In this document: positions 3,371 to 53,964 of the stretch, one piece after another
Position numbering within the stretch: the first letter of the stretch is position 1
Layout: each line of letters begins with the position of its first letter
Assembly (NCBI RefSeq): GCF_008919445.1
Contig: NZ_VSLG01000001.1
Coordinates: 186,001 to 250,000 of the forward strand
DNA: 64,000 bases
Reading direction: 5' to 3'
From: Serinicoccus kebangsaanensis
GTDB taxonomy: Bacteria; Actinomycetota; Actinomycetes; Actinomycetales; Dermatophilaceae
Position numbers and translations under genes: made by a program
The notes under the pieces: generated by a model
The model's database searches: none
What the model was told of the DNA's origin: nothing
What the model saw: the letters and a program-made list of their open reading frames with translations, nothing else

Positions 3371-3522
3371 ACCACGAGCGACGCCCGGTCGGGTCTGAGG
3401 TGACCACGAGCGACGCCCGGTCGGGTCTGAGGTGACTACAGACGACGCCCGGTCGGGTCTGAGGTGACCACGAGCGACGCCCGGTCGGGTCTGGGGTGAC
3501 CACAGGCGACGCTCGGTCAGGG
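3371..3522 (+). repeat. 32-bp tandem repeat array 1 (five units)
   Basis: Five head-to-tail units begin at 3371, 3403, 3435, 3467 and 3499, so the period is exactly 32 bp. The plus-strand core is close to ACCACGAGCGACGCCCGGT, followed by CGGGTCTGAGGTG. Unit 3 has ACTACAGACG and unit 5 has ACCACAGGCGACGCTCGGT. The last unit runs into the stop codon (3517-3519) of the minus-strand antiporter gene. The array lies between convergent genes. The same core recurs in arrays 2 and 3. Units have no variable spacers, so it is not a CRISPR array. Confidence 0.9.
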
Positions 3523-4875
3523 AGATGAGGCGCTGAGGCGCTCCCGGTCCCGCTCCAACCGGCTCATCACCGGGGTCACCAGCACCCCGTGCACGACCAC
3601 GGACAGCACCACGGTGAAGACGCAGGTGGCCCACAGCCACCGCTCACCGGTCCAGGTCGCCTCCGAGAGGGCATACGCCAGGTAGTAGAGCGTGCCCACT
3701 CCGCGGATCCCGAAGAAGGCGCTGATCGCCTGCTCCCGCCGGGCGAGGGGGCGGTGGGTCTCGTCGGCCAGCCGCCACCGCCCGGGCGCCAGGGCGGCCC
3801 AGCCGGCGACCGGACGGATCACGCCGACCAGGGCCACGCCCACGAGCACCCCGCGCCAGTCGAGGTGCTCGAGCGCCCCGTCGGTGAGCGCGATGCCGAC
3901 GAAGAGCAGCACCACGAGGGTGAGCACCCGCTCCAGCCGCTCGACGACACCGTGCATGTGCTCGTGGAACTCGTGCCGCCGTGCCCGGGAGCGGATGGTC
4001 ATGGCGCAGACAAAGACCGCGAGGAAGCCGTAGCCCTGCGCCACCTCGGCGACACCGTAGGCCAGCAGCATCGCGGCCAGCGCCAGCAGCGCCTCGCCCT
4101 GCTCGGCCAGCCGCAGCACCTGCTGGCGGGACCGGAAGGCGATGTAGGCCATGAACCACCCGACCGCGAGGCCGATCACCAGGCCGAGGACGATCTTGCC
4201 GACCAGCTCCCAGGCGAGCCACCGCCAGCCCCACTGCGCCACCGGGCCGAGCGTGGCGAGGAAGATCGCCGCGTAGACGAACGGGAAGGCGAGCGCGTCG
4301 TTGAGCCCGGCCTCCGAGGTGAGCGCGAAGCGCACCTCGTCGTCGTCGGTGATCTCGTCGTCGTGCAGCTGCTCCGCGACCGAGTCCTCGTCCTCCTGCG
4401 CCCCGGGGCGACGGATCGCCGGCCCGGCGACCTGGACGTCGCTGGCCAGCACCGGATCGGTCGGGGCCAGGACCGCACCGAGGAGGAGCGCCTGGGCCAC
4501 CCCCAGCCCGAGACCCCACCACCCGAGCAGGAAGACGCCGGCGATGGTGAGCGGCATCGCGATCCCGAGCAGCTTCCAGGTGGCCGCCCAGGTGCCCCAC
4601 GACCTGCGGTTGCGCCAGGACAGCGGCCGGTCCAGCGCCAGGCCCACGCCCATCAGCGCCAGCAGCACGGTGAACTCGGTGACGTGCTCGATGGTCTCCC
4701 GCTGGTTCGTGGGGTCGAAGGCGAACCTGGAGCCGATCGGCAGCAGCCCCACGAGGGCACCGATGACGATGAGGATCACCGGCGCGGACAGCCAGGCGCG
4801 CGTCAGCAGGCTGGGCAGCGCGACGGCGACCAGGAGCACCGCCCCGCCGAGCAGGAAGACCAGGTCCGACGACAT
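3517..4875 (-). CDS. CPA1-family sodium(cation)/proton antiporter
   Basis: A 452-residue polytopic membrane protein that should exchange Na+ or K+ for H+ and so help pH and salt homeostasis. About 11-13 hydrophobic segments are visible. Family marks include LGAVLAPTDPVLASDVQV (around residues 135-150) and SEAGLNDALAFPFVY (around 187-200), the Asn-Asp region of the CPA1 transport site. An acidic hydrophilic stretch (QEDEDSVAEQLHDDEITDDDE) sits between them. The ATG at 4875 lies 2 bp after the DUF3866 stop, so the two are probably co-transcribed. The stop codon lies inside the last unit of repeat array 1. Ion specificity cannot be told. Confidence 0.88.
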   Translation of the reverse strand: MSSDLVFLLGGAVLLVAVALPSLLTRAWLSAPVILIVIGALVGLLPIGSRFAFDPTNQRETIEHVTEFTVLLALMGVGLALDRPLSWRNRRSWGTWAATWKLLGIAMPLTIAGVFLLGWWGLGLGVAQALLLGAVLAPTDPVLASDVQVAGPAIRRPGAQEDEDSVAEQLHDDEITDDDEVRFALTSEAGLNDALAFPFVYAAIFLATLGPVAQWGWRWLAWELVGKIVLGLVIGLAVGWFMAYIAFRSRQQVLRLAEQGEALLALAAMLLAYGVAEVAQGYGFLAVFVCAMTIRSRARRHEFHEHMHGVVERLERVLTLVVLLFVGIALTDGALEHLDWRGVLVGVALVGVIRPVAGWAALAPGRWRLADETHRPLARREQAISAFFGIRGVGTLYYLAYALSEATWTGERWLWATCVFTVVLSVVVHGVLVTPVMSRLERDRERLSASSP

Positions 4876-4877
4876 GC

Positions 4878-6011
4878 TCAGCCCCGACGTCCGGCCGAGA
4901 CGAGCCGGCCGGCGTGCCGGCCGGCCACCGCCGCGGTGAGGAAGCCGGCGGGGTCGTCGTCCAGCCCTCGGCCCATCGTGGACAACGGCACCGGGGCGCC
5001 CCGGAGCTCACCCAGCAACCCGTCGGTCCCGACGTCGACGCCGGTGAGGTGCGCGGCGGCCGCCACCAGCTCACCCGCCTGCTCGCGGACCCGCTCGAGG
5101 CAGCCGACGAGCGGGTCCTGCGGGTCGCCGGGCGGCACCCTCGGGACCGGCACGTCCGCGGGGTGCGCCAGCACCCGGCCGAAGGCGGTGACGCTGTGGT
5201 GCGACAGCCCGCGGTGCCGGTCCCGGGCGTCCGCCTGGGACACCCGGAGACCGGCCACGGCGTGTCCACCCAGGACGGCGGCCGCGTTGAGCGCCTCTCC
5301 GACGGCGACACCGGAGAAGCCCCATCGGGTGTCCGTCCCAAGGTTCCCGGGACCCTGGGTCACCACCGCCAGGTCGGCGCCCACGACGTGCCGGGCGGCG
5401 AGCAGCGCGGTGTGCACGGTGACCGCCTCGAGGTCGCCCCCGAAGGCCTGTCCGGTCGTGATGGCGGCCTCCAGCCACCCGGCGTCCCGCAGCCCGGCCA
5501 CGGTGCGCGACCAGGCCAGGGGCAGCGCCGCACCGTCGGTCATGACGTAGGCCACCCGAGCCCCGGGTGCCTCGGCCCGGACCCCGGCGACCACCGCGGG
5601 CAGCGCCGAGTGCAGGTCGGTGGCGACCACCGGCATACCGTCCAGGTCGTCGGCCGCGGACAGCGCGGCGTGGTGCTCACCCTCCGGGTCGTCGACCCCC
5701 AGCACCATCGCCTGCAGCGGCGTGTAGCGGGCCTTGACCAGGTGGCCGGGCACCTCGGTCCCTCCGGCGTCGGGCCAGGCGCCGGGACGGTCCGGGATGG
5801 CGACGACGAGGGCATACCCACCGGTGCCGAGCCCCCGATCGAGCGCGGTGACGTTGAGCAGCACCCGGTCGCCGACGACCGGCGTCCCGACCAGGTCGGG
5901 ATAGGCCAGCGCCCGTGCCGTGCCACCGGCCGTGAGGTCGACCCCGACGACGACCACCCCGTCCCATCCGGGGAGCAGCTCGCGCACCTCGCCCTCGCGC
6001 CACGTGATCAC
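4878..6011 (-). CDS. DUF3866 family protein
   Basis: A 377-residue protein of a family found mainly in actinobacteria, often next to pafB/pafC; its function is unknown to me. It starts GTG-ATC-ACG-TGG (VITWREGEV) and contains recurrent family blocks such as VKARYTPLQAMVLGVD, YVMTDGAALPLA and TQGPGNLGTDTRWGFSGVAVGEALN. No signal peptide or membrane segment is evident. A TAGGCT -10-like box (complement of 6019-6024) lies seven bases before the GTG, so it is probably leaderless. It is divergent from pafB with only 56 bp between the starts and is followed 2 bp later by the antiporter gene. Confidence 0.8.
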   Translation of the reverse strand: MITWREGEVRELLPGWDGVVVVGVDLTAGGTARALAYPDLVGTPVVGDRVLLNVTALDRGLGTGGYALVVAIPDRPGAWPDAGGTEVPGHLVKARYTPLQAMVLGVDDPEGEHHAALSAADDLDGMPVVATDLHSALPAVVAGVRAEAPGARVAYVMTDGAALPLAWSRTVAGLRDAGWLEAAITTGQAFGGDLEAVTVHTALLAARHVVGADLAVVTQGPGNLGTDTRWGFSGVAVGEALNAAAVLGGHAVAGLRVSQADARDRHRGLSHHSVTAFGRVLAHPADVPVPRVPPGDPQDPLVGCLERVREQAGELVAAAAHLTGVDVGTDGLLGELRGAPVPLSTMGRGLDDDPAGFLTAAVAGRHAGRLVSAGRRG

Positions 6012-6018
6012 GAGGCCG

Positions 6019-6060
6019 AGCCTATAGATGCGCGGCGGCGTCGCGGCCGGACGGTAGCCT
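6019..6060. promoter_or_regulatory. Divergent leaderless promoters for DUF3866 and pafB
   Basis: On the minus strand TAGGCT (complement of 6019-6024) is seven bases from the DUF3866 GTG at 6011. On the plus strand TAGCCT (6055-6060) is seven bases from the pafB ATG at 6068. Neither gene has a Shine-Dalgarno sequence in this space. Both transcripts probably start at or within a base of the start codon. No clear -35 hexamers are visible. Confidence 0.55.
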
Positions 6061-6067
6061 CGGCAGC

Positions 6068-7081
6068 ATGGCGAAGAGTGCGAGCACGGGGGTCAGCCCT
6101 GCCACGGCGAAGACCGAGCGGCTGCTCAACCTCGTCATCGCCCTGCTGCACACCCGGCAGCCGCTGTCCAAGGCCAAGCTGCGCCAGGCCGTGCCGGACT
6201 ACGCGCAGGGCAGCGTCGAGGCCTTCGAGCGGATGTTCGAGCGGGACAAGGACGAGCTGCGGGCCCTGGGCATCCCGTTGCGGACCGAGCCGATCGACGC
6301 CTTCTTCGACGACGAGCCGGGCTACCGCATCGACCAGCGTGAGTATGCCCTGCCCGAGATCGACTTCGCCCCCGACGAGCTCGCGGTCCTGGGGCTGGCG
6401 GCGCGCGCGTGGAGCCAGGCGAGCCTGGCCGGGCCTGCGGCCCAGGCGCTGCGCAAGCTGGACGCCGCGGGGGTGGTGCGCGACGAGTCCTCGGTCGCCG
6501 GCATCGAGCCGTTGCTGCACACGCCCGATCCCGCCTTCGAGCCGGTGCGTGACGCGGTGCTGACGCGCACCCCGATCACCTTCGACTACCGCGGGGGCAG
6601 CGGGGACCTGGCGCACCGCCGGGTCCAGCCGTGGGGTCTGACCAGCTGGCACGGCCGGTGGTACCTCACGGCGCACGACCTGGACCGGGACGCACCGCGG
6701 GTGTTCCGGCTGGACCGCGTCGTCGGTGCGCCGAAGCGGTCGGGAAGGCCGGGGGAGTATGCCGTGCCGTCGGACCTCGACACGGTCGCCATGATCCGGC
6801 GCAGCACCGGCGACGAGCCGCCGGCGACCACGGCCGCGCGACTGCTGCTGCGCGACGGCGCGGCGGCCTCGCTGCGCCGACGGGGCACCCCGCTGCCGGG
6901 CGAGGAAGCGCCGGAGGGCTGGACCGCGCTGGAGCTGCCGACGGGTTCCCTGCCGCGGCTGGCGCGGGAGGTCTGCGCGGCCGGGGCCGACGTGCGGGTC
7001 CTCGCGCCCCCCGAGCTCGGGTCCCTCGTCGCGGAGCGGCTGCGCGCCGTCGCGGCCGCGCACGGGGGAGGGGAGGCGTGA
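6068..7081 (+). CDS. pafB: WYL-domain transcriptional regulator PafB
   Basis: First half of the PafBC activator pair. In mycobacteria PafBC works with RNA polymerase to switch on most DNA-damage genes independently of LexA/RecA. The 337-residue protein has an N-terminal winged helix-turn-helix (about 15-75: KTERLLNLVIALLHTRQPLSKAKLR) and a WYL region (about 160-240: PITFDYRGG, VQPWGLTSWHGRWYLTAHD, FRLDRVVG). Its TGA overlaps the ATG of pafC (TGATG), so the two are coupled. Start chosen at ATG 6068, which follows TAGCCT by seven bases. Despite the name it is not needed for pupylation; the link to pafA is gene order. Confidence 0.92.
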   Translation: MAKSASTGVSPATAKTERLLNLVIALLHTRQPLSKAKLRQAVPDYAQGSVEAFERMFERDKDELRALGIPLRTEPIDAFFDDEPGYRIDQREYALPEIDFAPDELAVLGLAARAWSQASLAGPAAQALRKLDAAGVVRDESSVAGIEPLLHTPDPAFEPVRDAVLTRTPITFDYRGGSGDLAHRRVQPWGLTSWHGRWYLTAHDLDRDAPRVFRLDRVVGAPKRSGRPGEYAVPSDLDTVAMIRRSTGDEPPATTAARLLLRDGAAASLRRRGTPLPGEEAPEGWTALELPTGSLPRLAREVCAAGADVRVLAPPELGSLVAERLRAVAAAHGGGEA

Positions 7082-8061
7082 TGGCGACCTACGAGAGCGC
7101 GACCTCGCGGGTCTCGCGGATGCTGACGATGGTCCCGTGGCTGGTGCACCGCCAGGGTATCGACCTGGCGACCGCCGCCGCCGAGCTGGGCGTCTCCGAG
7201 AGCCAGGTCGTCGAGGACCTGCAGGTGCTGTTCCTGTGCGGCCTGCCCGGCCACTACCCGGACGACCTCATCGAGGCGTCCTGGGAGGGCGGCCGGGTCT
7301 TCGTCGGCAACGCCGACACCATCGCCCGGCCGCTGCGCCTGGGCCGGGACGAGGCGCTGGCGCTCATCGTGGCGCTGCGCGCGCTCGCGGCGACGCCGGG
7401 CCTGGCCGAGCGGGAGGCCATCGACCGCGCCCTCGCCAAGCTCGAGGGCGCCGCGGGCGACAGCGCCGAGGGGGCCGGTCAGGTGCGGGTGGACCTGGAC
7501 CAGCCGGTCGACGACGAACTCGCGGCGCGGGTGCGGACCGGGCTGTCCGAGCAGCGCCGGCTGCACCTGCGCTACACCTCCGCGAGCCGCGACGAGACCA
7601 CCGAGCGTGACGTCGACCCGCTGCGGGTCCTGTCGGTCGACGGCCGGTGGTACCTCGAGGGGTGGTGCCACCGCGCCGCCGACCTCCGCCTCTTCCGGCT
7701 GGACCGGATCGAGTCGGTCGAGGTGCTCGACCAGGCGGCCACCCCGCCGGACGAGCTGCCCGAGCGGCCCGTGGGATCGGGCGTCTACCGCCCGGACCCG
7801 CACGACCAGAGCGTCGTGCTGGACCTCGCGCCCGGCTCCGCCTGGGTGGCCGAGCAGATCCCGGCCGAGGAGGTCTCACCGCGCGACGACGGCTCGGTCC
7901 GGATGACGCTCCGGGTCGCCGACCCGCACTGGCTGGTGCGGCTGGTGCTGCGCGAGGGCGGCGGCGTCCGCGTGGTCGAGCCGGCCGCCATGGTCGACGA
8001 GGTCCGCGAGGCAGCCGCGGCCGGGCTCGCAGGGAACCCCGCCGAGGGCGCCGACCGTTAG
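7081..8061 (+). CDS. pafC: WYL-domain transcriptional regulator PafC
   Basis: Second half of the PafBC heterodimeric activator of the DNA-damage response. The 326 residues show the same layout as PafB: a helix-turn-helix at about 10-70 (LTMVPWLVHRQGIDLATAAAELGVSE), a WYL core at about 165-215 (RLHLRYTSASRDE, VDPLRVLSVDGRWYLEGWC, FRLDRIES) and a C-terminal extension. The start ATG at 7081 overlaps the pafB stop. Its own TAG stop contributes to a TAGACT sequence (8059-8064) that may serve as the -10 box for tatA. The pafB-pafC-tatA-tatC-helY order matches Rv2096c-Rv2092c of Mycobacterium. Confidence 0.92.
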   Translation: MATYESATSRVSRMLTMVPWLVHRQGIDLATAAAELGVSESQVVEDLQVLFLCGLPGHYPDDLIEASWEGGRVFVGNADTIARPLRLGRDEALALIVALRALAATPGLAEREAIDRALAKLEGAAGDSAEGAGQVRVDLDQPVDDELAARVRTGLSEQRRLHLRYTSASRDETTERDVDPLRVLSVDGRWYLEGWCHRAADLRLFRLDRIESVEVLDQAATPPDELPERPVGSGVYRPDPHDQSVVLDLAPGSAWVAEQIPAEEVSPRDDGSVRMTLRVADPHWLVRLVLREGGGVRVVEPAAMVDEVREAAAAGLAGNPAEGADR

Positions 8062-8124
8062 ACTGGTGCGGCAAGCTGTCCGTGGCTCACACCCGCGGCG
8101 CCCGATCCGAGAGTGAGTTGCACC

Positions 8125-8412
8125 ATGCGTCTGCAGGCCTGGCACATCGTCGTCCTCGTCATCGCGTTCATCGTGCTCTTCGGCTGGAAGAACCTGCCCA
8201 ACATGGCGCGCTCCATGGGTGAGTCCATGCGGGTCTTCAAGTCCGAGGTCGACCAGATGAAGGACGAGGGTGAGGCGCGCAAGGACGCCAAGGACGCCGA
8301 GCGCCCGGCGCTGGAGGACCGCAGCAAGGACGCCGACAGCGACACCGCCCGGCAGGAGTACGACGCGATGAAGCGGCGCCAGTCCGGCGACGGCGCCTCG
8401 CCGAACGCCTGA
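8125..8412 (+). CDS. tatA: Sec-independent translocase subunit TatA
   Basis: A 95-residue TatA/TatB-type subunit that forms the pore part of the twin-arginine export system for folded proteins. It has one N-terminal membrane helix (residues about 5-22, WHIVVLVIAFIVLFGWKNLP), the usual hinge and an amphipathic helix with MARSMGESMRVFKSEV, then a charged tail. ATG 8125 is preferred over an upstream in-frame GTG because it places the membrane helix at the very N-terminus. It is followed 24 bp later by tatC. TAGACT at 8059-8064 is a possible -10. Confidence 0.93.
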   Translation: MRLQAWHIVVLVIAFIVLFGWKNLPNMARSMGESMRVFKSEVDQMKDEGEARKDAKDAERPALEDRSKDADSDTARQEYDAMKRRQSGDGASPNA

Positions 8413-8436
8413 CCCGGCGCACCGGCATACTCCTCC

Positions 8437-9264
8437 GTGGCCCGCACCGACCGTCCCCGCCGACGCCGCAGAGACCCCGAGGGCCGGATGGCGCTCGGCG
8501 AGCACTTCCGCGAGCTGCGCAACCGGCTGACGATCAGCGTCCTCGCGATCGCCGTGCTGGCGGTGGTGGGGTGGTACTTCTACGACGAGATCTTCAGCTT
8601 CGTCAACGCGCCCATCGTGCGGGTCGCCCAGGAGCGTGGTGACGAGGCGGTCAGCCTGCGCTTCCAGAACATCACCGAGCCGTTCGCCATGCAGCTGCGG
8701 GTGGCGATCTTCAGCGGGATCCTGCTGGCCAGCCCCATCTGGCTGTGGCAGATCTGGGCCTTCCTGCTGCCGGGGCTGCGGCGTCCGGAGAAGCGCATCG
8801 CCCTGTCCTACTTCTTCATCTCGATCCCGCTCTTCTTCGCCGGGGCGGCGCTGGCGGCCTTCACCTTCCCGCGGCTGGTCGCGATCCTGCTGGGCTTCAC
8901 CCCCCAGGGAGCCGCGAACCTGCCGGGAGCCCAGGAGTTCCTCTCGCTCTGGCTCTACTTCATGCTCGCCTTCGGTCTGGCCTTCCTGCTGCCGGTGGTC
9001 CTGGTCGCGGCCAACCAGATCGGCATCCTGCCGGCGAGCGTCATGCTCCGCAGCTGGCGGATCGTGCTGTTCGGCATCCTCGTCTTCTCCGCCTTCATGA
9101 CCCCCGACCCCAGCGCCTGGACCATGCTGGCCATGGCCTCGCCGGTGTTCGCGCTCTTCTGGTGCGCGGTCGGGATCTCCTTCCTCATGGAGCGGCGCCG
9201 CGCCCGGAAGAACCCGGACCGGTATGCCGGTCTCTCCCCGGACGAGGCGACCCCTCTCACATGA
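8437..9264 (+). CDS. tatC: Sec-independent translocase subunit TatC
   Basis: A 275-residue, six-helix membrane protein that recognises twin-arginine signal peptides. Family features visible: the N-terminal MALGEHFRELRNRL segment, the periplasmic ITEPFAMQLRVA loop that contains the conserved Glu, and FALFWCAVGISFLMERRRAR near the C-terminus. The start is GTG at 8437, which keeps the basic RPRRRRRD leader in front of the conserved LGEHFREL. The TGA overlaps the ATG of the following lipid-kinase-like gene (ATGA). Confidence 0.95.
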   Translation: MARTDRPRRRRRDPEGRMALGEHFRELRNRLTISVLAIAVLAVVGWYFYDEIFSFVNAPIVRVAQERGDEAVSLRFQNITEPFAMQLRVAIFSGILLASPIWLWQIWAFLLPGLRRPEKRIALSYFFISIPLFFAGAALAAFTFPRLVAILLGFTPQGAANLPGAQEFLSLWLYFMLAFGLAFLLPVVLVAANQIGILPASVMLRSWRIVLFGILVFSAFMTPDPSAWTMLAMASPVFALFWCAVGISFLMERRRARKNPDRYAGLSPDEATPLT

Positions 9265-10145
9265 GGTATGCCGTCGCGCACGGCCGCAGGTCCGGCCGGC
9301 GGGGCGGCGCGGTGGTGGGGGAGCAGGCGGTCACCCGGCTGCGGGGCGCGTGCCACGACGTGGTGGAGGTGGTCGGGGACTCGCTGGAGCAGGTGCGGGC
9401 CGCGTGCGCCGCGCTGGTGGCCGACGGGGTGGACGTGCTCGTGGTCGCGGGCGGGGACGGACTGGTCAGCCTCGGCACCGACCTGTGCGCCGGCTCCGGC
9501 ACCACGCTGGCGGTCCTGCCGGCCGGGACCGGCAACGACAACGCCCGCAGCCTGGGCATCGGACCGGGTCACCCGGCTCTGGACGTGCTGCTCGGTGCCC
9601 GGACCAGGACCGTCGACACCCTCCACGTCCCCGAGCTGGGCCGCCGCGTCCTGGGGTCGGTCTGCGGCGCCCTGGACGCCCGGATCAACGCCCGGGCCAA
9701 CACCTGGCCACGGTGGCTGGGGCCGTCGGCCTACAGCCTGTCCGCGCTGGTCGAGATCGCCCTGCTCCGGCTCCAACCGCCGCTGGCCTACCAGCTCGTG
9801 GTCGACGGCCGCACCGAGGACCTCGAGGCGCTGGTCGTGGTCGCCGCCAACATGCCCCACCTCGGGGGCGGGCTGCCGATCGCGCCCGCGGCCGACCCCG
9901 AGGACGGCGAGCTCGACCTCGTCGTGGTGTCACCGGTCTCCGCGCGGGAGGCCGTCGGGCTGCTGCGCGCGATCCGGGCGGGCAGGCATACCACTCACCC
10001 GGCGGTGCGCATCGTGCGTGCGCACGAGGTGCACCTGAGCGGACCGCCCGACGTGGTCGCCCACGGTGACGGGGAGGCGCTGGCGGCGCTGCCGCTGACC
10101 GTCCGGGTCGAGGCCGCGAGCCTGCGGGTGCTCGCCCCCTCCTGA
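9261..10145 (+). CDS. Diacylglycerol kinase-like (DAGK catalytic domain) protein
   Basis: A 294-residue protein of the bacterial lipid/sphingosine kinase family, which phosphorylates diacylglycerol or a similar lipid with ATP. The nucleotide-binding signature VVAGGDGLVSL and PAGTGNDNARSLGI is at about residues 63-100, and the C-terminal lobe has the expected ADPEDGELDLVVVS block. The family's usual DGGDGT glycine loop is slightly altered (AGGDGLVS). ATG 9261 overlaps the tatC stop, so it belongs to the tat operon. It stops 15 bp before helY. Substrate is inferred from the family only. Confidence 0.85.
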   Translation: MRYAVAHGRRSGRRGGAVVGEQAVTRLRGACHDVVEVVGDSLEQVRAACAALVADGVDVLVVAGGDGLVSLGTDLCAGSGTTLAVLPAGTGNDNARSLGIGPGHPALDVLLGARTRTVDTLHVPELGRRVLGSVCGALDARINARANTWPRWLGPSAYSLSALVEIALLRLQPPLAYQLVVDGRTEDLEALVVVAANMPHLGGGLPIAPAADPEDGELDLVVVSPVSAREAVGLLRAIRAGRHTTHPAVRIVRAHEVHLSGPPDVVAHGDGEALAALPLTVRVEAASLRVLAPS

Positions 10146-10160
10146 CGTAGCCTGGGAGGC

Positions 10161-13109
10161 ATGTCCACCCCCGCAGAGCGATATGCGGCCTCCCGTGCGC
10201 GCGCGAGGTGGGAGGCGACGCCGGCCGGCCGGTTCACCAGCACCATCGGCTTCGAGCTGGACCCCTTCCAGCTCGAGGCGATCGAGGCGGTGCAGGGCGG
10301 GGCCGGGGTGCTGGTGGCGGCACCCACGGGCGCGGGCAAGACGGTGGTCGGCGAGTTCGCGGTGGCGCTCGCGCTGGAGACCGGGCGCAAGGCCTTCTAC
10401 ACCACCCCGATCAAGGCGCTGTCGAACCAGAAGTACCACGACCTGGTGGCGCGGCACGGCGCGGCCAACGTGGGCCTGCTCACGGGGGACGCCTCCGTCA
10501 ACGGGGAGGCGCCGGTGGTCGTCATGACCACCGAGGTGCTGCGCAACATGATGTATGCCTCCTCGCCGACCCTCACCGGGCTCGGCTTCGTGGTGATGGA
10601 CGAGGTGCACTACCTCGCGGACCGGTGGCGCGGCGCGGTCTGGGAGGAGGTCATCATCCACCTGCCCGAGTCGGTCCAGGTCATCTCGCTGTCCGCGACG
10701 GTGAGCAACGCCGAGGAGTTCGGCGACTGGCTGCGCCAGGTCCGCGGCCGCGGCAACCCCGACTCGCTGCGGGTCATCGTCTCCGAGCACCGGCCGGTGC
10801 CGTTGTGGCAGCACATGATGGTCGGGCAACGGATGTACGACCTGTTCGTCACCGACGGCACCCGCGCGCCCTCCGGCACCGACGGGACCACGCGGGTCAA
10901 CCCCGAGCTGCTGCAGGCGATCTCCGCCGCCGAGCGGTCGGCACGGTCCGAGGGCGGCTGGCGCCGGGAGGACGCCGGGGGGCCCCGGGGGCGGCGCGGT
11001 GACCGGCGGGGCAAGGGCGGACGTGGCGGCCGGGACGACCGGCAGCGGGCCGGCCGTGGACGCGGAGGCCCCTCCGGACAGCGACCCTCGGACCGGGGTC
11101 CACGCCGCGACGACGCCCGCGGCTACAGCTCCGGCGGCCCTGACCAGGCCGGGTTCGCCCGTGGTGCGCTGCCCGGCGGCGTGGCCAGCCGGACCCAGGT
11201 CATCGACCGGCTGGACCGGGAGGGGCTGCTGCCGGCGATCACCTTCATCTTCAGCAGGGCCGGGTGCGACGCGGCCGTGCAGCAGCTGCTCGGCCGGGGC
11301 GCCCGACTGATCCCGGACGAGCTGGGCCAGCGGATCCGTGCCCTGGTCGCCGAGCGGGTGGCGGAGGTGGACCCGGCCGACCTGGGCGTCCTCGGTTACC
11401 ACGACTTCGTCGAGGGCCTCTCCCGGGGCTATGCCGCCCACCACGCCGGGATGCTCCCGCTCTTCCGGGAGATCGTGGAGGAGCTGTTCACCGCCGGGCA
11501 GGTGCGCGCGGTCTTCGCCACCGAGACCCTCGCCCTCGGCATCAACATGCCGGCCCGCACCGTGGTGCTGGAGAAGCTGGTGAAGTTCAACGGGGAGGAG
11601 CACGCGCCGGTCACGCCGGCCGAGTACACCCAGCTCACCGGGCGCGCCGGGCGCCGGGGCATCGACGTCGAGGGGCACGCGGTCGTGCTGTGGCGGCGGG
11701 GCGTGGACCCGATGGACGTGGCCGGGCTCGCCTCCACCCGGACCTACCCGCTGCGCAGCTCGTTCCGGCCCAGCTCCAACATGGCCGTGAACCTCGTGGC
11801 GCAGTACGGCCGGGAGAAGGCGCACGAGCTGCTCCAGGCCAGCTTCGCGCAGTTCCAGGCCGACCGGTCCGTGGTCGGGCTCACGACGCAGCTGCGGCAC
11901 AACCTGGAGGCGCTGGAGGGGTATGCCGCGTCGATGGCGTGCGACCGGGGCGACTTCCGTGAGTACGGCCGGCTGCGGCACGAGCTCTCCGAGGTCGAGA
12001 AGAAGGCGGCCCGCACCCGTCAGGCGCAGCGGCGCAGCGACATCGGCCAGGCGCTGGAGGCCCTGGAGCCCGGCCAGGTGATCCAGCTCGACGGTGGACG
12101 GCACGGGACGATGGCCGTCGTCGTCAAGGGGGCGCGTGGCCGCTCCGCCGGCCCCGAGCCGACCGTGATCACCTCGAACGGTCGGGTGCAGCGGCTCACG
12201 ATCCCCGGCTTCCGGGACGTGCCGGAGGTGATCGGCTCGCTGCGCATCCCGGCGCACTTCAACGAGCGCAGCCCGAAGGCGCGCAAGGACCTCGCCGCCA
12301 CCCTGCGCAGCACGGTCCGCGAGCCCGTGCCCGGCCGGGCGCGCGAGGACGGCGGGGGAGCGGGCATACCCACCAGGACCGAGACACGGGTGCAGGACCT
12401 GCGCGCCCAGCTGTCCGCGCACCCGTGCCACAGCTGCCCCGAGCGCGAGGACCACGCCCGGTGGGCGGCGAGGTGGTGGAAGCTGCGCAAGGAGACCGAC
12501 GACCTGCAACGGCGGGTCTCGCACCGCACCGGCACGCTCGCGGCGACGTTCGAGCGGATCTGCGACCTGCTGTCCGAGGCCGGCTACCTGAGCAAGGACG
12601 GCGCGCACGTCACCCCGGAGGGCGAGCGGCTGCGCCGGATCTACACCGAGCTGGACCTGGTGGCCGCCGAGGCGCTGCGCCGCGGGACCTGGCGCCGGCT
12701 CACCCCGGCAGACCTGGCGGCGGTCGTGTCCGCCCTGGTCCACGAGTCCCGCGGCGACGAGCCGGGTGACCCGCCCACACCGAGCGTCGAGGTCGCCGAG
12801 GCGCTCGGCGAGATGAGCGCCATCTGGCAGGAGGTCCAGGCCGGCAAGCTGGCCCACAGCCTCACCGGCGACCGGGAGCTCGACCCCGGCATCTCCTGGA
12901 TGGTGCACCGCTGGGCGTCCGGGCGGGGCCTCGAGGAGGTGCTGCGCTCCGGCGACCTGTCCGCGGGTGACTTCGTGCGCCGGGCCAAGCAGGTGGTCGA
13001 CCTGCTGGGCCAGATCGCGCACGCGGCGGACGAGGACGTCGCCGCCACGGCCCGGCGTGCCTCCGCGGCGATGCTCCGCGGCGTCGTCGCCGCGGACCGG
13101 CTGGACTGA
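10161..13109 (+). CDS. helY: Ski2/Mtr4-like DExH helicase HelY
   Basis: A 982-residue ATP-dependent nucleic-acid helicase related to eukaryotic Ski2/Mtr4 RNA helicases and mycobacterial HelY. Walker A APTGAGKT is near residues 53-60, DEVH near 148-151 and the SLSATVSN motif III follows. Helicase domain 2 has ATETLALGINMPARTVV and LTGRAGRRGID. The C-terminal third resembles the DSHCT region. An Arg/Gly-rich, probably disordered insertion occupies about residues 266-326 between the two RecA-like lobes. A TAGCCT box (10148-10153) seven bases before the ATG suggests a leaderless start inside the operon. Confidence 0.93.
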   Translation: MSTPAERYAASRARARWEATPAGRFTSTIGFELDPFQLEAIEAVQGGAGVLVAAPTGAGKTVVGEFAVALALETGRKAFYTTPIKALSNQKYHDLVARHGAANVGLLTGDASVNGEAPVVVMTTEVLRNMMYASSPTLTGLGFVVMDEVHYLADRWRGAVWEEVIIHLPESVQVISLSATVSNAEEFGDWLRQVRGRGNPDSLRVIVSEHRPVPLWQHMMVGQRMYDLFVTDGTRAPSGTDGTTRVNPELLQAISAAERSARSEGGWRREDAGGPRGRRGDRRGKGGRGGRDDRQRAGRGRGGPSGQRPSDRGPRRDDARGYSSGGPDQAGFARGALPGGVASRTQVIDRLDREGLLPAITFIFSRAGCDAAVQQLLGRGARLIPDELGQRIRALVAERVAEVDPADLGVLGYHDFVEGLSRGYAAHHAGMLPLFREIVEELFTAGQVRAVFATETLALGINMPARTVVLEKLVKFNGEEHAPVTPAEYTQLTGRAGRRGIDVEGHAVVLWRRGVDPMDVAGLASTRTYPLRSSFRPSSNMAVNLVAQYGREKAHELLQASFAQFQADRSVVGLTTQLRHNLEALEGYAASMACDRGDFREYGRLRHELSEVEKKAARTRQAQRRSDIGQALEALEPGQVIQLDGGRHGTMAVVVKGARGRSAGPEPTVITSNGRVQRLTIPGFRDVPEVIGSLRIPAHFNERSPKARKDLAATLRSTVREPVPGRAREDGGGAGIPTRTETRVQDLRAQLSAHPCHSCPEREDHARWAARWWKLRKETDDLQRRVSHRTGTLAATFERICDLLSEAGYLSKDGAHVTPEGERLRRIYTELDLVAAEALRRGTWRRLTPADLAAVVSALVHESRGDEPGDPPTPSVEVAEALGEMSAIWQEVQAGKLAHSLTGDRELDPGISWMVHRWASGRGLEEVLRSGDLSAGDFVRRAKQVVDLLGQIAHAADEDVAATARRASAAMLRGVVAADRLD

Positions 13110-13200
13110 CGCGCGGCCCTCTCGCGGTCCGCACCCGTGAGGATCGGTGCACCTGCCCCTCGGCTCACCGGAGGGGACCGGTGACCGTACCCTGACGGGC

Positions 13201-14406
13201 ATGACCGAGATCGTCATCTGCTCCCCGCTGCGCACCCCGGTCGGGGGCTACCTCGGCAGCCTGGCCACCCTGACCGCGGCCGACCTCGGCACCCAGCTGC
13301 TCACCACCCTGCTGGAGCGCACCGGGTTGGGCGACGGCGACGTCGACGACGTGATCCTCGGCAACGCCAACCCCTCCGGCGAGATCCCGGCCCTGGGCCG
13401 CATCGTCGCCCTCAACGCCGGGCTCGACTCCGCTCCGGGTATGCAGCTGGACCGGCGCTGCGGGTCCGGCCTGCAGGCGGTCCTGACCGCGGCGGCCCAG
13501 GTCGCGACGGGCGGGAGTCGCCTCGTCGTCGCCGGGGGTGCGGAGTCGATGAGCAGCGTCGAGCACTACGCCCTGCTCCGGCAGGGGGTGCGTGCCGGGG
13601 TGGACCTGGCCGACCGGCTCGCCCGGGCCCGCTCCACCGCGGGTGGGGAGCACCACCCCATCCCCGGAGGCATGATCGAGACCGCGGAGAACCTCCGTCG
13701 CGACTACCGGATCTCCCGCGAGGCGCAGGACGAGCTCGCGGTGCGCTCCCACCAGCGCGCGGCGGCGGCGCAGCGCGAGGGCCGCTTCGCCGACGAGCTG
13801 GTGCCCGTCGAGGTGCCCGGGCGCACGGGGGTGACGGTGGTCGACACCGACGAGCACGTGCGCCCCGAAACCGACGTCGCCGCCCTCGCCGGGCTGCGGC
13901 CGATCCTGGGCCGGAGTGACCCGGAGGCGACCGTCACCGCCGGCAACGCCAGCGGGCAGAACGACGCCGCGGCCCTCTGCGTCGTCACCACACGGGACCG
14001 CGCCGAGCAGCTGGGCCTGGCACCGATGCTCGGGCTGCGGTCGTGGGCGCTCGCGGGGGTCGCTCCCGAGACCATGGGCATCGGCCCCGTCCCGGCCACG
14101 GCCGCCGCGCTGGAGCGCGCCGGGCTGGGTCTGGACGACCTGGATCTCATCGAGCTCAACGAGGCCTTCGCGGCGCAGGCGCTGGCCGTGCTCACCGAGT
14201 GGGGCATGGCCGGGAGCGACCGGTGGGACCGGCTCAACGTGAACGGCTCCGGGATCTCGCTCGGCCACCCCGTCGGCGCCACCGGAGCCCGGATCCTGGC
14301 CACGCTGGCCCACGAGCTGGGGCGTCGCGAGGGTCGCTACGCCCTCGAGACCATGTGCATCGGCGGTGGGCAGGGCCTGGCCGCGGTCTTCGAGCGGGTC
14401 AGCTGA
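13201..14406 (+). CDS. Thiolase (acetyl-CoA C-acyltransferase)
   Basis: A 401-residue thiolase that makes or cleaves 3-ketoacyl-CoA, in beta-oxidation or acetoacetyl-CoA formation. The acyl-accepting Cys is in DRRCGSGLQAV (about residue 87), the catalytic His in LGHPVGATG (about 354) and the second Cys in MCIGGGQG (about 385); NEAFA is also intact. ATG 13201 follows TACCCT (13188-13193) by seven bases, consistent with a leaderless mRNA. It stands alone and ends 8 bp inside the convergent PAP2 gene. Direction and chain length of its substrate cannot be deduced. Confidence 0.93.
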   Translation: MTEIVICSPLRTPVGGYLGSLATLTAADLGTQLLTTLLERTGLGDGDVDDVILGNANPSGEIPALGRIVALNAGLDSAPGMQLDRRCGSGLQAVLTAAAQVATGGSRLVVAGGAESMSSVEHYALLRQGVRAGVDLADRLARARSTAGGEHHPIPGGMIETAENLRRDYRISREAQDELAVRSHQRAAAAQREGRFADELVPVEVPGRTGVTVVDTDEHVRPETDVAALAGLRPILGRSDPEATVTAGNASGQNDAAALCVVTTRDRAEQLGLAPMLGLRSWALAGVAPETMGIGPVPATAAALERAGLGLDDLDLIELNEAFAAQALAVLTEWGMAGSDRWDRLNVNGSGISLGHPVGATGARILATLAHELGRREGRYALETMCIGGGQGLAAVFERVS

Positions 14407-15028
14407 GCGCGGGACGACCCCGCACGAGGAGGCCGAGGCCACCCGCGCCGACCGCCAGCAGCACCGACGCGACCACGTCGCTGGGCCGGTGGAACCCCAG
14501 CATGACGACGAGCGCTCCCATCCACACGGTCAGACCCGCGCCGAGCACCGACGCGACGGGCAGCCAGGCGCGCGGAGCCACCAGGAGCAGCGCCAGGGCC
14601 AGGGCGGCGGCCGCACCGGTGTGCCCGCTCGGCAGCGAGTTGGACATCAGCCACGGGTCCGCCAGCTGGGGGCGGGGCAGCAGCGCCTTGAGCACCTGGG
14701 TGGAGGCGACCAGGACCGGGACGGACACGAGCACCGCCAGGCCGGTCCGGGGCCGGTGCAGCGAGGCCAGCACTCCGACACCCAGGGCCAGGGCGAGCAG
14801 GACGTAGGGGTTGGGCAGGACGCTGTCGAGGAGTTGGTGCTGCGCGCCGGTCACCGTGACGGCGTCCATCAGGCCGGAGTCGACCCGCTGCCCCGTGGTG
14901 CTGAGCACCGCCACGGCATACACCGCGCCGAAGGCGGCGATCGCGCCCACGACCAGGCCCAGCGGGCGCGGCCAGGCGACCGCCGGCACGCGGGTGTGCC
15001 CGGGGTCGGGGGCGGTGGTGGTGCTCAC
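14399..15028 (-). CDS. PAP2-family membrane phosphatase
   Basis: A 209-residue membrane protein with five to six hydrophobic segments and the three phosphatidic-acid-phosphatase signatures: KALLPRP, SLPSGHTG and GFHRPSDVVAS. Members remove phosphate from lipids such as phosphatidate or undecaprenyl pyrophosphate. GTG at 15028 (VSTTTAPD) is preferred over GTG at 15037, because TACCGT (complement of 15036-15041) sits seven bases ahead of it. The gene is convergent with the thiolase and their ends overlap by 8 bp. Confidence 0.87.
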   Translation of the reverse strand: MSTTTAPDPGHTRVPAVAWPRPLGLVVGAIAAFGAVYAVAVLSTTGQRVDSGLMDAVTVTGAQHQLLDSVLPNPYVLLALALGVGVLASLHRPRTGLAVLVSVPVLVASTQVLKALLPRPQLADPWLMSNSLPSGHTGAAAALALALLLVAPRAWLPVASVLGAGLTVWMGALVVMLGFHRPSDVVASVLLAVGAGGLGLLVRGRPALS

Positions 15029-15092
15029 CCCGTCCACGGTAGGGCGGTCACCTGTGCGGCGCCTGTGCCGACAGGCGGCTGCGGGTGCGGGC

Positions 15093-16055
15093 CTACGGCC
15101 TCACCTTGAGCGCGGACATCAGCCGTCCCACGGGATTGCCGAGGTCGTAGGTCTCGATGAGCTGCTGCAGCGTCCCCGGGTCCGCGAGCTCGCGGGGGAG
15201 AGTGAGCGGGACGTCCGCGACCGGCGCGTCCTGCGCCACCAGCACGACCGTCGGGGCGACGTCCAGGTAGGCGGCGCCCGCCTCGAGGTTGGTGCGTCGG
15301 GCGCCCTTGATCGCCGGGTCCCCGGAGTCGACGGCGGCGCGCAGGCCCTCGAGCGTGCCGTACTCCTCGATCAGGGCGGCAGCGGTCTTCTCCCCGATGC
15401 CCTTGACCCCCGGCAGCCCGTCCGAGGTGTCGCCGCGCAGCATCGACATCTCGGCGTACGCGCGCCCGGTGGGGACGGCATACCGCGACCGCAGGTCGGC
15501 CTGGTGGATCTCCTCGGCGTCCCGGACACCCTGCTTGGCGGTGTAGATCACCGTCACCCCGGCCTCGTCGTCCACCAGCTGGAAGAGGTCGCGGTCCCCG
15601 GTCACCACGCCGACCGGCATCCGGCCGCGGTGCCGCGCGGTGAGCGTGCCGATGACGTCGTCCGCCTCGTAGCCGTCGGCACCCAGGATCGGGATGCCGA
15701 CGGCGTCCAGCACCCGACGGATGATCGGCACCTGGACCTCGAGCTCAGGTGGAGCCTCCTCCTTCTCCTCCGAACCCTCGACCAGACGATGAGACTTGTA
15801 GGAGGGGATCGCCTGCACCCGGAAGTCGGGGCGCCAGTCGTTGTCCCAGCAGCACACCAGGTGGGTGGGGGAGAAGCGGCCGACCAGGGTGGCGATCATG
15901 TCCACCAGCCCCCGGACCGCGTTGGTCGGCGTGCCGTCCGGCGCCTCGCGGAGGTCCTTGACGCCGAAGAAGGCCCGGAAGTAGAGCGACGCCGTGTCGA
16001 GCAGGAGGAGCTGGGGCGGCGCGACGTCGGGGTCGCGGTCCGGAGGTGTCGTCAT
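15093..16055 (-). CDS. 5'-3' exonuclease (PolI N-terminal/FEN-like family)
   Basis: A stand-alone 5' nuclease of about 320 residues, homologous to the N-terminal nuclease of DNA polymerase I. It should trim flaps and RNA primers or degrade 5' ends. The metal-binding Asp clusters are visible: LLLLDTASLYFRAFFG, CCWDNDWRPDFR, GYEADDVIGTL, VTGDRDLFQLV and the helix-hairpin-helix LPGVKGIGEKTAAALI. ATG 16055 is chosen over ATG 16064 since TAGGGT (complement of 16063-16068) lies seven bases before it and overlaps the upstream candidate. Its homologue Rv2090 also lies near helY. Confidence 0.9.
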   Translation of the reverse strand: MTTPPDRDPDVAPPQLLLLDTASLYFRAFFGVKDLREAPDGTPTNAVRGLVDMIATLVGRFSPTHLVCCWDNDWRPDFRVQAIPSYKSHRLVEGSEEKEEAPPELEVQVPIIRRVLDAVGIPILGADGYEADDVIGTLTARHRGRMPVGVVTGDRDLFQLVDDEAGVTVIYTAKQGVRDAEEIHQADLRSRYAVPTGRAYAEMSMLRGDTSDGLPGVKGIGEKTAAALIEEYGTLEGLRAAVDSGDPAIKGARRTNLEAGAAYLDVAPTVVLVAQDAPVADVPLTLPRELADPGTLQQLIETYDLGNPVGRLMSALKVRP

Positions 16056-16091
16056 GGCGCTCACCCTAGTGCCGGTGGGTTAGCGTGAGGT

Positions 16092-16358
16092 ATGCCTCGA
16101 CGCCTGGCGATCTCGCTGCTGGTCATCGTCGTGGCGGTGTCGGCGGTGCTGCTGTTCGGGCCGCTGTGGGACAGCGCCGAGGGGGAGAACCCGCTGACCC
16201 GGCCTCCGGAGCCGGACTACGGCGCGGTGCTGCGGCTGGCGCTGCCGACGCTCCTGGTGGCGGCCGTGGTCGGACTGCTGGTCGTGCCGCCCCACGGGCG
16301 TCGGGCGCCGACCCGGTCGCAGCTCGCGCCTCCCAGGGGGTCCTCGCGCGCCGATTAG
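16092..16358 (+). CDS. Small two-helix membrane protein, unknown function
   Basis: An 88-residue protein I do not recognise. It has a hydrophobic helix at about 4-24 (LAISLLVIVVAVSAVLLFG) and another at about 46-66 (LRLALPTLLVAAVVGLLVVP), joined by a charged loop and followed by a basic Arg/Ser tail. ATG 16092 lies five bases after TAGCGT (16081-16086). It is divergent from the exonuclease and 9 bp before asnC. Codon use matches its neighbours, so it is probably a real gene. Confidence 0.6.
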   Translation: MPRRLAISLLVIVVAVSAVLLFGPLWDSAEGENPLTRPPEPDYGAVLRLALPTLLVAAVVGLLVVPPHGRRAPTRSQLAPPRGSSRAD

Positions 16359-16367
16359 GCTGACCGC

Positions 16368-16832
16368 ATGGAGCCGTTGGATCGCCACATCGTCACCGTC
16401 CTCGCGCAGGACGGGCGGATCAGCTTCGCCGACCTGGGCCGGCAGGTGGGGTTGTCCACCTCGGCCGTCCACCAGCGGGTCAAGCGGCTCGAGGAGCGAG
16501 GCATCATCACCGGCTACCGCGCGGTCGTCGACTACGCCTCGGTCGGCCTGCCGCTGACGGCGCTGATGTCGGTGACCCCCTTCGACCCCTCCGACGACGA
16601 CGACATCCCGGAGCGGCTGGCCCACATCGAGGAGATCGTGGCGTGCTGGTCGGTGGCGGGCGACGAGAACTACGTGCTCCTCATCCGGGTGTCCCGCCCG
16701 CAGGACCTGGAGGAGCTGCTGGCGCGGATCCGGCAGGAGGGCTCCTGCTCCACGAACACCACGATCGTGCTGTCGACGCCCTGGGAGGACCGCCTCGGCA
16801 GCCTGCCGGTGCACACCCCCGACGCGACCTGA
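16368..16832 (+). CDS. Lrp/AsnC-family transcriptional regulator
   Basis: A 154-residue regulator with an N-terminal helix-turn-helix (about 5-55: LDRHIVTVLAQDGRISFADLGRQVGLSTSAVHQRVKRLEERG, quoted by its ends only as LDRHIV and VKRLEERG) and a C-terminal RAM ligand domain (about 65-150). Such proteins sense amino acids and control their metabolism. It starts at ATG 16368, six bases after TAGGCT (16356-16361), so the mRNA is probably leaderless. The lysine 2,3-aminomutase gene lies 0.8 kb downstream in the opposite strand, which makes lysine or a related amino acid a plausible ligand; that is inference only. Repeat array 2 begins 14 bp after its stop. Confidence 0.9.
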   Translation: MEPLDRHIVTVLAQDGRISFADLGRQVGLSTSAVHQRVKRLEERGIITGYRAVVDYASVGLPLTALMSVTPFDPSDDDDIPERLAHIEEIVACWSVAGDENYVLLIRVSRPQDLEELLARIRQEGSCSTNTTIVLSTPWEDRLGSLPVHTPDAT

Positions 16833-16846
16833 CCCGACCTGACCCC

Positions 16847-16998
16847 ACCGAGCGTCGCTTGTGGTTGGCTCACGCCCCACCGGGCGTCGCTTGTGGTTGC
16901 CCCCAGCCTCACCGGGCGTCGCTTGTGGTTGGCTCACGCCCCACCGAGCGTCGCTTGTGGTTGGCTCACGCCTCACCGGGCGTCGCCTGTGGTGGCTA
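16847..16998 (-). repeat. 32-bp tandem repeat array 2 (five units)
   Basis: Units begin at 16847, 16879, 16911, 16943 and 16975, again an exact 32-bp period. On the plus strand each unit reads close to ACCGGGCGTCGCTTGTGGTT, which is the reverse complement of the array 1 and array 3 core. The linker is mostly GGCTCACGCCCC, with CCCCCAGCCTC in one unit. The array fills the space between convergent asnC and ybaK, and its last unit runs directly into the ybaK stop codon (16996-16998). Confidence 0.9.
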
Positions 16999-17490
16999 GG
17001 GCCGCCGAGCGATGCCGGCGACCGCCCCGCGGGTCACGGCGAGGAGGTCCGAGGGCGCCAGCTCCAGGTCCAGGCCACGGCGTCCTCCACTCACGAGGAT
17101 CGTGTCGTGCTGCTCCGCGGAGGCGTCCAGCACCGTCGCGAGGGACCGCTTCTGCCCGATCGGGCTGATTCCTCCGACCACGTATCCCGTGACGCGCTGC
17201 GCCGTGGCGACCTCGGCCATGGACACCCTCTTGAGCCCGAGGGCGGCCGCCATCGCCTTGAGATCGAGCTGTCCGTCCACCGGCACGATGCCCACCGAGA
17301 GCTCGCGCTCACCCTGCACGAGCAGCGTCTTGAACACCCTGGCCGGTTCCACCCCGAGCGCCTCGGCCGCCTCGGTCCCGTAGGACGTCGCCGCCGGGTC
17401 GTGGTCGTAGGCACGCACCGCATACCTGATCCCCGCCCGATCGAGGGTCGCCGTCGCCGGAGTTCCACCCGACTGCCTCGTCCTCGCCAC
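16996..17490 (-). CDS. ybaK: YbaK/EbsC-type Cys-tRNA(Pro)/aminoacyl-tRNA deacylase
   Basis: A 164-residue trans-editing protein of the YbaK family, which hydrolyses mischarged Cys-tRNA(Pro). Family marks: TPATATLDRAGIRY, YDHDP, SYGTEAAEALGV, VFKTLLV and the YVVGGISPIGQKR loop, which holds the conserved GGxSPxG and Lys. Start set at GTG 17490 (VARTRQSGG). Longer frames upstream only translate repeat array 3 and are not real. The gene is bracketed by repeat arrays 2 and 3 in inverted orientation. Confidence 0.88.
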   Translation of the reverse strand: MARTRQSGGTPATATLDRAGIRYAVRAYDHDPAATSYGTEAAEALGVEPARVFKTLLVQGERELSVGIVPVDGQLDLKAMAAALGLKRVSMAEVATAQRVTGYVVGGISPIGQKRSLATVLDASAEQHDTILVSGGRRGLDLELAPSDLLAVTRGAVAGIARRP

Positions 17491-17517
17491 CACGCCAGGG
17501 TATGCCGTCGCCCGGCA

Positions 17518-17641
17518 ACCACAAGCGACGCCCGGTCGGGCTGCAGCCAACCACAAGCGACGCTCGGTGGGACTGGAGCCAACCACAAGCGACGCCCGGT
17601 AGGGCTGCAGCCAACCACAAGCGACGCTCGGTGGGAGAGCG
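17518..17641 (+). repeat. 32-bp tandem repeat array 3 (four units)
   Basis: Units begin at 17518, 17550, 17582 and 17614, with the same exact 32-bp period as arrays 1 and 2. The core is ACCACAAGCGACGCCCGGT or the GCTCGGT variant, followed by CGGGCTGCAGCCA-like sequence. The array lies between the 3' end of kamA and the 5' end of ybaK, and the last unit ends about 12-20 bp from the kamA stop. It is inverted with respect to array 2 on the other side of ybaK. Confidence 0.9.
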
Positions 17642-53898: not shown

Positions 53899-53964
53899 CG
53901 ACGTCGTCGGCGATCCCAATCTAGCAGCCCGGTCCGGTCCTGACCGGGTCGGCCGGCGGCGTCC

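What the first reader, a model, noticed from the sequence alone, without database searches (positions are those of the whole stretch)
3371..17641. A family of exact 32-bp tandem repeats at gene ends
Three arrays (3371-3522, 16847-16998, 17518-17641) share the core ACCACAAGCGACGCCCGGT and a period of exactly 32 bp in every step I could measure (five, five and four units). The period equals about three helical turns. Arrays lie only between genes and always directly after at least one stop codon. I know no named repeat family with this design. It could bind a protein in phase along one face of DNA, end transcripts, or act in RNA.
Basis: seen in the sequence. Interest (0 to 1): 0.78.

Follow-up and report, generated by a model that had tools for sequence, protein, structure and literature searches.

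The report
Repeat arrays at bacterial gene ends
Some bacteria of one genus carry dozens of short arrays of a 32-base repeat just behind genes; in two of the three species compared closely, arrays within a genome resemble each other more than arrays at the same place in the other species, so something copies or polices them, and what that is remains unknown.

Summary
Three arrays (5, 5, 4 cores) lie where stated, every step 32 bp. The family is genome-wide: 154 core pairs at 32 bp in the window's genome; such pairs occur in 10 of 186 genomes of the family, all of one genus (Serinicoccus, inferred from named relatives), in none of the 155 outside it; control zero. In 25 sampled stretches 113 of 115 steps are 32 bp, and 30 of 39 arrays overlap or lie within 20 bp of a stop codon. 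G015 keeps a core at 22 of 31 matching gene ends, all in the same orientation, yet core bases differ genome-wide between the window's species and G019: concerted change, not seen in G015. No Y1 (RAYT-type) transposase in 31 congeners, no excess RNA folding, no match in phage, plasmid or viral records. Best reading: a dispersed repeat with REP-like placement, but tandem and not palindromic, growing locally in 32-bp steps and homogenised between sites by an unknown process. Other intergenic tandem families of the genus lean to periods near multiples of 10.5 bp (post hoc). A terminator role is not supported.

The parts
3371..3517 (+). Array 1: five cores (3371, 3403, 3435, 3467, 3499), four steps of 32 bp; spacer CGGGTCTGAGGTG (one copy with one change). 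Lies between convergent genes; antisense to the FKBP gene, sense to the exchanger gene.
16847..16993 (-). Array 2: five cores, four steps of 32 bp; sense array 14 bp behind the stop of the Lrp/AsnC-type gene; convergent with the tRNA-editing-domain gene (stop 16996-16998).
17518..17632 (+). Array 3: four cores, three steps of 32 bp (two alternating unit types; TRF also reads it as 64 bp); sense array 20 bp behind the stop of the KamA-like gene, upstream of the tRNA-editing-domain gene.
2948..3346 (+). Flanking gene: FKBP-type peptidyl-prolyl isomerase (PF00254)
3517..4875 (-). Flanking gene: sodium/hydrogen exchanger (PF00999); its TGA (3517-3519) overlaps the last base of array 1
16368..16832 (+). 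Flanking gene: Lrp/AsnC-type regulator (PF13404, PF01037)
16996..17418 (-). Flanking gene: aminoacyl-tRNA editing domain protein (PF04073); start codon uncertain, the open frame runs on into array 3
17653..19125 (-). Flanking gene: KamA-family radical SAM protein, lysine 2,3-aminomutase-like (NCBIfam hits below the curated cut-offs; no Pfam hit at 0.001)

Best explanation
The arrays belong to a lineage-specific family of dispersed repeats that settles at the 3' ends of genes. The unit is 32 bp: a conserved core (ACCAYNNRCGRCGCYCGGT) plus a 13-bp spacer. Shown: genome-wide occurrence in 10 of 31 genomes of one genus, near-fixed 32-bp period, stop-codon placement, array positions shared between species, and core bases that differ genome-wide between the window's species and G019. 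Inferred: arrays grow and shrink locally by whole units (slippage or unequal recombination), and units of the variant that currently succeeds are copied into other arrays (gene conversion or a templated copying process), so that arrays of a genome change together. The place just behind a stop codon is kept because it is tolerated. Why the period stays at 32 bp is inferred only: the likeliest reason is that something reads the cores from one face of the helix.
For: 154 core pairs at exactly 32 bp in the own genome, 242 in G019, control 0; 113 of 115 steps are 32. Placement: 30 of 39 arrays within 20 bp of, or overlapping, a stop (median 7), 5 of 26 within 20 bp of a start (median 96.5); arrays in 13 of 50 convergent, 18 of 148 co-directional and 3 of 69 divergent gaps (Fisher p 0.004 and 0.019). 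Same places in relatives (best tblastn hits of 33 gene ends facing 31 gaps): G015 22 of 31 with a core, 22 of 22 in the same orientation; G019 13 of 16, 11 of 13 in the same orientation; G012 2 of 32. Species-specific bases with one neutral pattern, counted by eye from the capped listings: position 5 is C in 88 of 100 listed own cores (183 in all), T in 100 of 100 listed G019 cores (310 in all), T in 33 of 50 listed G015 cores (93 in all); CT at positions 6-7 in 79 of 100 (G019), 0 of 100 (own) and 0 of 50 (G015). Local growth: spacers differ 0.18 within and 0.47 between own arrays. Whole-unit copying: in G019 spacers beginning CGCTCTCAC occur in 15 of 100 listed pairs (230 in all), at 9 distant places (by eye).
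Against: No enzyme or process of copying was identified; no Y1 transposase in the genus. G015 does not show concerted change: its orthologous cores differ from the own ones by 2.77, less than its own arrays differ from each other (3.58). Spacers differ more between arrays than the variable core positions do (0.47 against 0.32 in G000, 0.49 against 0.23 in G019), which fits selection on the core through a binding partner at least as well as copying of whole units. Positions and orientation are largely shared with G015, so recent jumping to new places is not shown. G012 lacks a core at 30 of 32 gene ends, and I cannot tell loss from absence.
Confidence: 0.48

Rival explanations
1. The core is the binding site of a sequence-specific DNA-binding protein (chromosome organiser, supercoiling or recombination factor) that sits on one face of DNA every three helical turns. 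The protein's specificity changed between species and the sites followed.
For: Period near-fixed at 32 bp; core more alike between arrays than the spacer; species-specific bases confined to a few core positions; arrays lean to convergent gene ends. Periods of 47 intergenic tandem families in 10 congeners cluster modulo 10.5 bp (R 0.41, p 0.0003-0.0005 on smoothed nulls).
Against: No protein known. 21 of 31 congeners have no core pair and G012 few, so no essential role. The phase test is post hoc, moduli 10 to 11 fit nearly as well, it weakens to p 0.011-0.016 without the 32- and 44-45-bp families, and 13 families of other genera show no signal. In G019 spacers recur at distant places, which selection on the core does not explain.
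Confidence: 0.27
2. The arrays are transcription terminators or RNA 3'-end elements that protect or end mRNA.
For: Placement just behind stop codons; sense orientation preferred 24 to 10 (p 0.024); 7 of 7 close inverted pairs have the same order and could fold as one long hairpin (in the two convergent gaps among them, L108 and L112, the order follows from sense orientation alone).
Against: Tandem units fold no better than shuffled units: mean z -0.03 and -0.26 on the two strands, 35 arrays. No T-run in the unit (by eye). One array (L102) leaves 18 bp before the next start where G012 has genes overlapping by ATGA; a strong terminator there would silence the next gene. At the KamA-like site G027 and G019 carry arrays in the opposite orientation. 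G012 lacks a core at 30 of 32 gene ends.
Confidence: 0.12
3. A purely neutral minisatellite kept alike by chance descent, with no dispersal or selection.
For: Positions shared with G015 and G019; orthologous G015 arrays are more alike than shuffled pairs (12 of 5000 permutations as low) and more alike than arrays within G015.
Against: Orthologous G000-G019 cores differ by 3.85 of 19 bases while cores within each genome differ by 1.99 and 1.18 (G000 places were picked with a pattern that favours its own variant, but the neutral listings show the same). Neutral drift at separate sites does not produce this.
Confidence: 0.08

Closest known systems
REP elements / BIMEs and CGTC-tagged REPs (Di Nocera et al. 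2013, PMC3733652; seen: abstract, twelve passages, the section on genome distribution)
   Same: Short repeats in tens to hundreds of copies; species-specific families; many lie less than about 20 bp from the 3' ends of convergent or co-directional genes; may supply the stop codon; inverted pairs are common; CGTC REPs also lack a known transposase.
   Different: REPs are palindromes with 5-13 bp stems and a GTAG or CGTC tag, and head-to-tail dimers are rare; here units are not more self-complementary than shuffled ones, stand head-to-tail at 32 bp, and no Y1 transposase is found in the genus.
TAACTGA direct repeats of marine Beggiatoaceae (PMC4679880; seen: listing and twelve passages)
   Same: Direct repeats in two to six copies at 169 intergenic places of one genome; no spreading mechanism evident; some overlap stop codons.
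   Different: Unit of 7 bases, in that genome mostly pointing at start codons; shared between distant lineages.
Intergenic minisatellites: MIRU/VNTR of mycobacteria, STRR/LTRR of cyanobacteria (recalled; only search listings seen)
   Same: Tandem units between genes at many places of one genome.
   Different: Recalled MIRU units are longer (about 46-101 bp); a near-exact 32-bp period over 40 arrays and the species-specific core bases were measured here only for this family.
DNA uptake sequences (recalled)
   Same: Species-specific short motif spread over a genome, often in inverted pairs behind genes.
   Different: Recalled as a 9-12 base motif in thousands of copies, not tandem.

Membership tests
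REP / BIME | unit is a palindrome that folds into a stable hairpin | tested here: not met
   mean z -0.03 and -0.26 over 35 arrays against shuffled units
REP / BIME | Y1 (RAYT-type) transposase in the genome (GTAG class) | tested here: not met
   PF01797 in 0 of 31 congeners; found in 5 of 14 control genomes
REP / BIME | lies behind genes, close to stop codons, more between convergent genes | tested here: met
REP / BIME | GTAG or CGTC tag beside the stem | not tested
   CGTC occurs within the core on one strand (sequence), but no stem was shown for it to flank
CRISPR array | unique spacers between repeats | tested here: not met
   13-bp spacers differ only 0.18 within an array
Intrinsic terminator | stable hairpin followed by a T-run | tested here: not met
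   for folding; no T-run in the units (by eye)
Known RNA family | match to an Rfam model | tested here: not met
   gathering threshold: only a glycine riboswitch in the window, none at the arrays
Phage- or plasmid-borne element | present in phage, plasmid or viral records | tested here: not met
   no match with array 2 as the only query; none with the two-core pattern, exact
VNTR / minisatellite | unit number differs between strains of a species | not testable with these tools
   one genome per species; unit numbers do differ between species at the same place

The most novel reading that the evidence does not exclude
A new class of bacterial satellite DNA: tandem arrays anchored behind stop codons whose unit length is a whole number of helical turns (about 22, 32, 42, 52 bp), with several sequence-unrelated families obeying the same rule in one genus, each kept uniform within a genome by a co-evolving binding protein or an unknown copying machine.
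Probability: 0.18. Interest if true: 0.78.

Novelty: new variant of a known kind. Interest (0 to 1): 0.5.

Why it matters
Concerted change of some 40 very short, scattered arrays needs either copying between places or a shared reader, and neither is known here. The genus offers a clean comparison: the same gap between two genes is filled by one 32-bp variant, by another, by an unrelated 51-bp repeat, or is nearly closed. If the helical-phase lead holds in a larger, pre-planned test, it would point to a physical constraint on how bacterial tandem repeats are made or read.

Tried and rejected
Y1-transposase-driven REP: PF01797 in 0 of 31 genomes. Unit hairpin or terminator: single-unit and tandem folds looked suggestive, but the shuffled-unit control removed the effect. 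Family in other genera: the two-core pattern found none in 155 genomes outside the genus; a single-core pattern gave one chance-like match among 247 other genomes drawn from the order and 69 stretches in named genomes, of which 12 are Serinicoccus; the only 4 with two or more matches are Serinicoccus. Phage, plasmid and viral origin: no match. Chromosome-polarity signal (such as KOPS, recalled): G019 has 115 pairs on each strand overall; replichores were not tested separately. A claim dropped: own base frequencies rest on places picked with a pattern that demanded R at position 7 and A at 11, so I repeated the listing with a neutral pattern and use that. In print: searches listed no paper that describes this repeat by title or start of abstract; one search found no paper at all, one search showed 15 of 107, 15 of 101, 10 of 13,531, and only two papers were opened.

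Limits: gene models are from my own codon-usage script, not curated; gaps under 20 bp without arrays were not counted, which favours arrays in all classes. Orthology means best tblastn hit of a 60-residue C-terminal piece; it was not tested further, and pieces 10/11 and 16/17 face the same gap. For G019 only 16 of 33 pieces had fetched sequence. 25 own stretches (460,461 of 3,503,838 bases) were examined; the first listing showed 100 of 223 places, and at least five further places (C2:37220, C2:37292, C2:93772, C4:79934, C5:47972) were not fetched. Two loci that read only N (L229, L237) were dropped.
Full report
Observation. The three arrays exist as described. TRF finds 32-bp arrays at 3371-3518, 16843-16997 and 17516-17632. 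The core with up to three mismatches occurs 14 times in the window, all in these arrays, against 0.08 expected in shuffles. All 11 steps between neighbouring cores are 32 bp. Array 1 lies between an FKBP gene and a convergent sodium/hydrogen exchanger gene, array 2 between an Lrp/AsnC-type gene and a convergent tRNA-editing-domain gene, array 3 between that gene's start and the stop of a KamA-like gene.

Family in the genome. The own genome (3,503,838 bases, 37 contigs) holds 223 cores with up to two mismatches for a first, narrow pattern (control 16), and 154 pairs of cores exactly 32 bp apart with up to three mismatches for a wider one (control 0). I fetched 25 stretches around the 100 places listed (460,461 bases). 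They hold 40 arrays of two or more cores with 155 cores; of 115 steps up to 110 bp, 113 are 32 bp, one 33 and one 49. Arrays have 2 to 11 cores; 31 of 40 have 3 to 5.

Distribution. Pairs at 32 bp occur in 10 of 186 genomes of the family, all of the window's genus: G019 242, G000 154, G004 98, G027 92, G020 87, G028 66, G015 52, G003 29, G012 9, G008 6; the other 21 congeners and the 155 genomes of other genera have none, and the control is zero in all 186. In named genomes the 4 of 69 fetched stretches with two or more exact cores are all Serinicoccus, so the genus name is an inference from named relatives. Phages and plasmids gave no match to array 2, and viral contigs none to the two-core pattern.

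Placement. By my gene models the nearest stop codon lies within 20 bp of, or inside, 30 of 39 arrays (median 7 bp; one further array had none in range); the nearest start within 20 bp for 5 of 26 (median 96.5 bp). Of the gaps counted, 13 of 50 convergent, 18 of 148 co-directional and 3 of 69 divergent ones hold arrays, close to the two, one and no stop codons that such gaps have; convergent against rest p 0.004, divergent against rest p 0.019. Relative to the gene with the nearest stop, 24 arrays read in sense (ACCGRGCG first), 10 in antisense, 6 have no stop within 140 bp (p 0.024). All 7 close inverted pairs have the same order, minus then plus; 5 of them lie in co-directional gaps, where the order does not follow from sense orientation of two genes.

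Relatives. I compared the 3' flanks of two window genes in 30 loci each from congeners and of 33 array-neighbouring gene ends, facing 31 gaps, in three congeners. At the FKBP site G000, G019 and G015 have 32-bp arrays; G003, G004, G020, G027 and G028 carry other sequence (TRF reads a 51-bp repeat in G003 and G004); in G012 exchanger-like sequence starts at once behind the FKBP stop (by eye). At the KamA-like site G000, G020 and G004 have sense units, G027 and G019 antisense units, G012, G015 and G003 none. Over the larger set G015 has a core at 22 of 31 gene ends, all 22 in the same orientation; G019 at 13 of 16, 11 in the same orientation; G012 at 2 of 32. So many array positions are old.

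Concerted change. The bases are not all old. With the same neutral pattern, position 5 is C in 88 of 100 listed own cores (183 in all), T in 100 of 100 listed G019 cores (310 in all), T in 33 of 50 listed G015 cores (93 in all); positions 6-7 are CT in 79 of the 100 G019 cores and in none of the 100 own and 50 G015 cores (counted by eye). Array consensus cores at matching places differ by 3.85 of 19 between G000 and G019, against 1.99 within G000 and 1.18 within G019 (the own places are biased to the own variant). For G015 the figures are 2.77, 1.99 and 3.58: its arrays are more alike to their G000 counterparts than to each other, so concerted change is shown for G000 and G019 and not for G015. 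In line with this, matching pairs are closer than shuffled ones for G015 (12 of 5000 permutations) but not for G019 (1589 of 5000). Spacers differ 0.18 within and 0.47 between own arrays (random 0.67); in G019 0.17 and 0.49. In G019 spacers of one type recur at 9 distant places (15 of 100 listed pairs, by eye). Local sameness of the whole unit plus genome-wide sameness of the core, and in part of the spacer, needs local duplication plus copying between places or a shared reader of the core.

Function. Folding gives no excess structure for tandem units on either strand (35 arrays). At L102 a four-unit array stands 18 bp before the next start; G012 has the two genes overlapping by ATGA. Twice the array seems to supply the upstream gene's stop (pieces 0 and 24). 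These facts argue against a strong terminator and for a tolerated guest at gene ends. No Y1 transposase is found in 31 congeners, so the known REP driver is missing.

Other tandem families. In 1.2 Mb of sampled stretches from ten congeners (three of which, G008, G012 and G019, bear this family) TRF finds 56 intergenic tandem repeats (score 70 or more, period 12 or more), of many sequences and periods; 18 of 53 classed ones lie between convergent genes, against 93 of 630 background gaps. A 32-bp array of unrelated sequence occurs in G005. G016, G007 and G023 have 32-bp arrays that share little more than the start ACCGAGCGC with this family (the G023 period was counted by eye); G008 has diverged members. 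One representative per sequence family (47 families, 18-70 bp) gives clustering modulo 10.5 bp, R 0.41, p 0.0003-0.0005 on smoothed nulls, 0.0008-0.0020 without 44-45 bp, 0.011-0.016 without 32 bp as well. Moduli 10 and 11 do nearly as well, 13 families of other genera show nothing (p 0.65), and the test was thought of after seeing the data. I treat it as a lead.

Verdict. A real, genus-limited family of dispersed tandem repeats with REP-like placement and, in two of three species, concerted change, but without palindrome, RAYT or tag shown. I file it as a new variant of the known kind 'dispersed intergenic repeats', not as a member of REP. No paper describing it was seen in the listings of searches, which cover open-licence PMC text only.

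Noticed in passing
window 53810-53906 (-): Glycine riboswitch aptamer (RF00504, 55.2 bits); the gene that it would control, below 53810 on the minus strand, was not examined.
   Followed up: no
L190:13541-13672 (G005), L197:8116-8226 and L200:14303-14379 (G007): A second family of 31-32-bp intergenic arrays in other congeners, with GGTYTCGYA in common (by eye).
   Followed up: partly
L160 (G003) and L161 (G004), 3' flank of the FKBP gene: A 51-bp tandem repeat containing a palindrome of the type GGCGTTCACGTGAACGCC occupies the gap that holds array 1 in the window.
   Followed up: partly
L218, L220 (G029), L215 (G018): 22-23-bp intergenic tandem families (for example CGTGTTCTGTCGCGCCTTCTCA) in further congeners.
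   Followed up: partly
L280 and L260 (G012): G012, which has few 32-bp cores, has palindromic repeats (GGGGAGGATCGGTGCAGCTGCACCGATCCTCCCC type) in two gaps where the window's genome carries arrays.
   Followed up: no
G019:C1:2556665-2556779: Three cores at a 48-bp instead of 32-bp step, a rare exception to the period.
   Followed up: no
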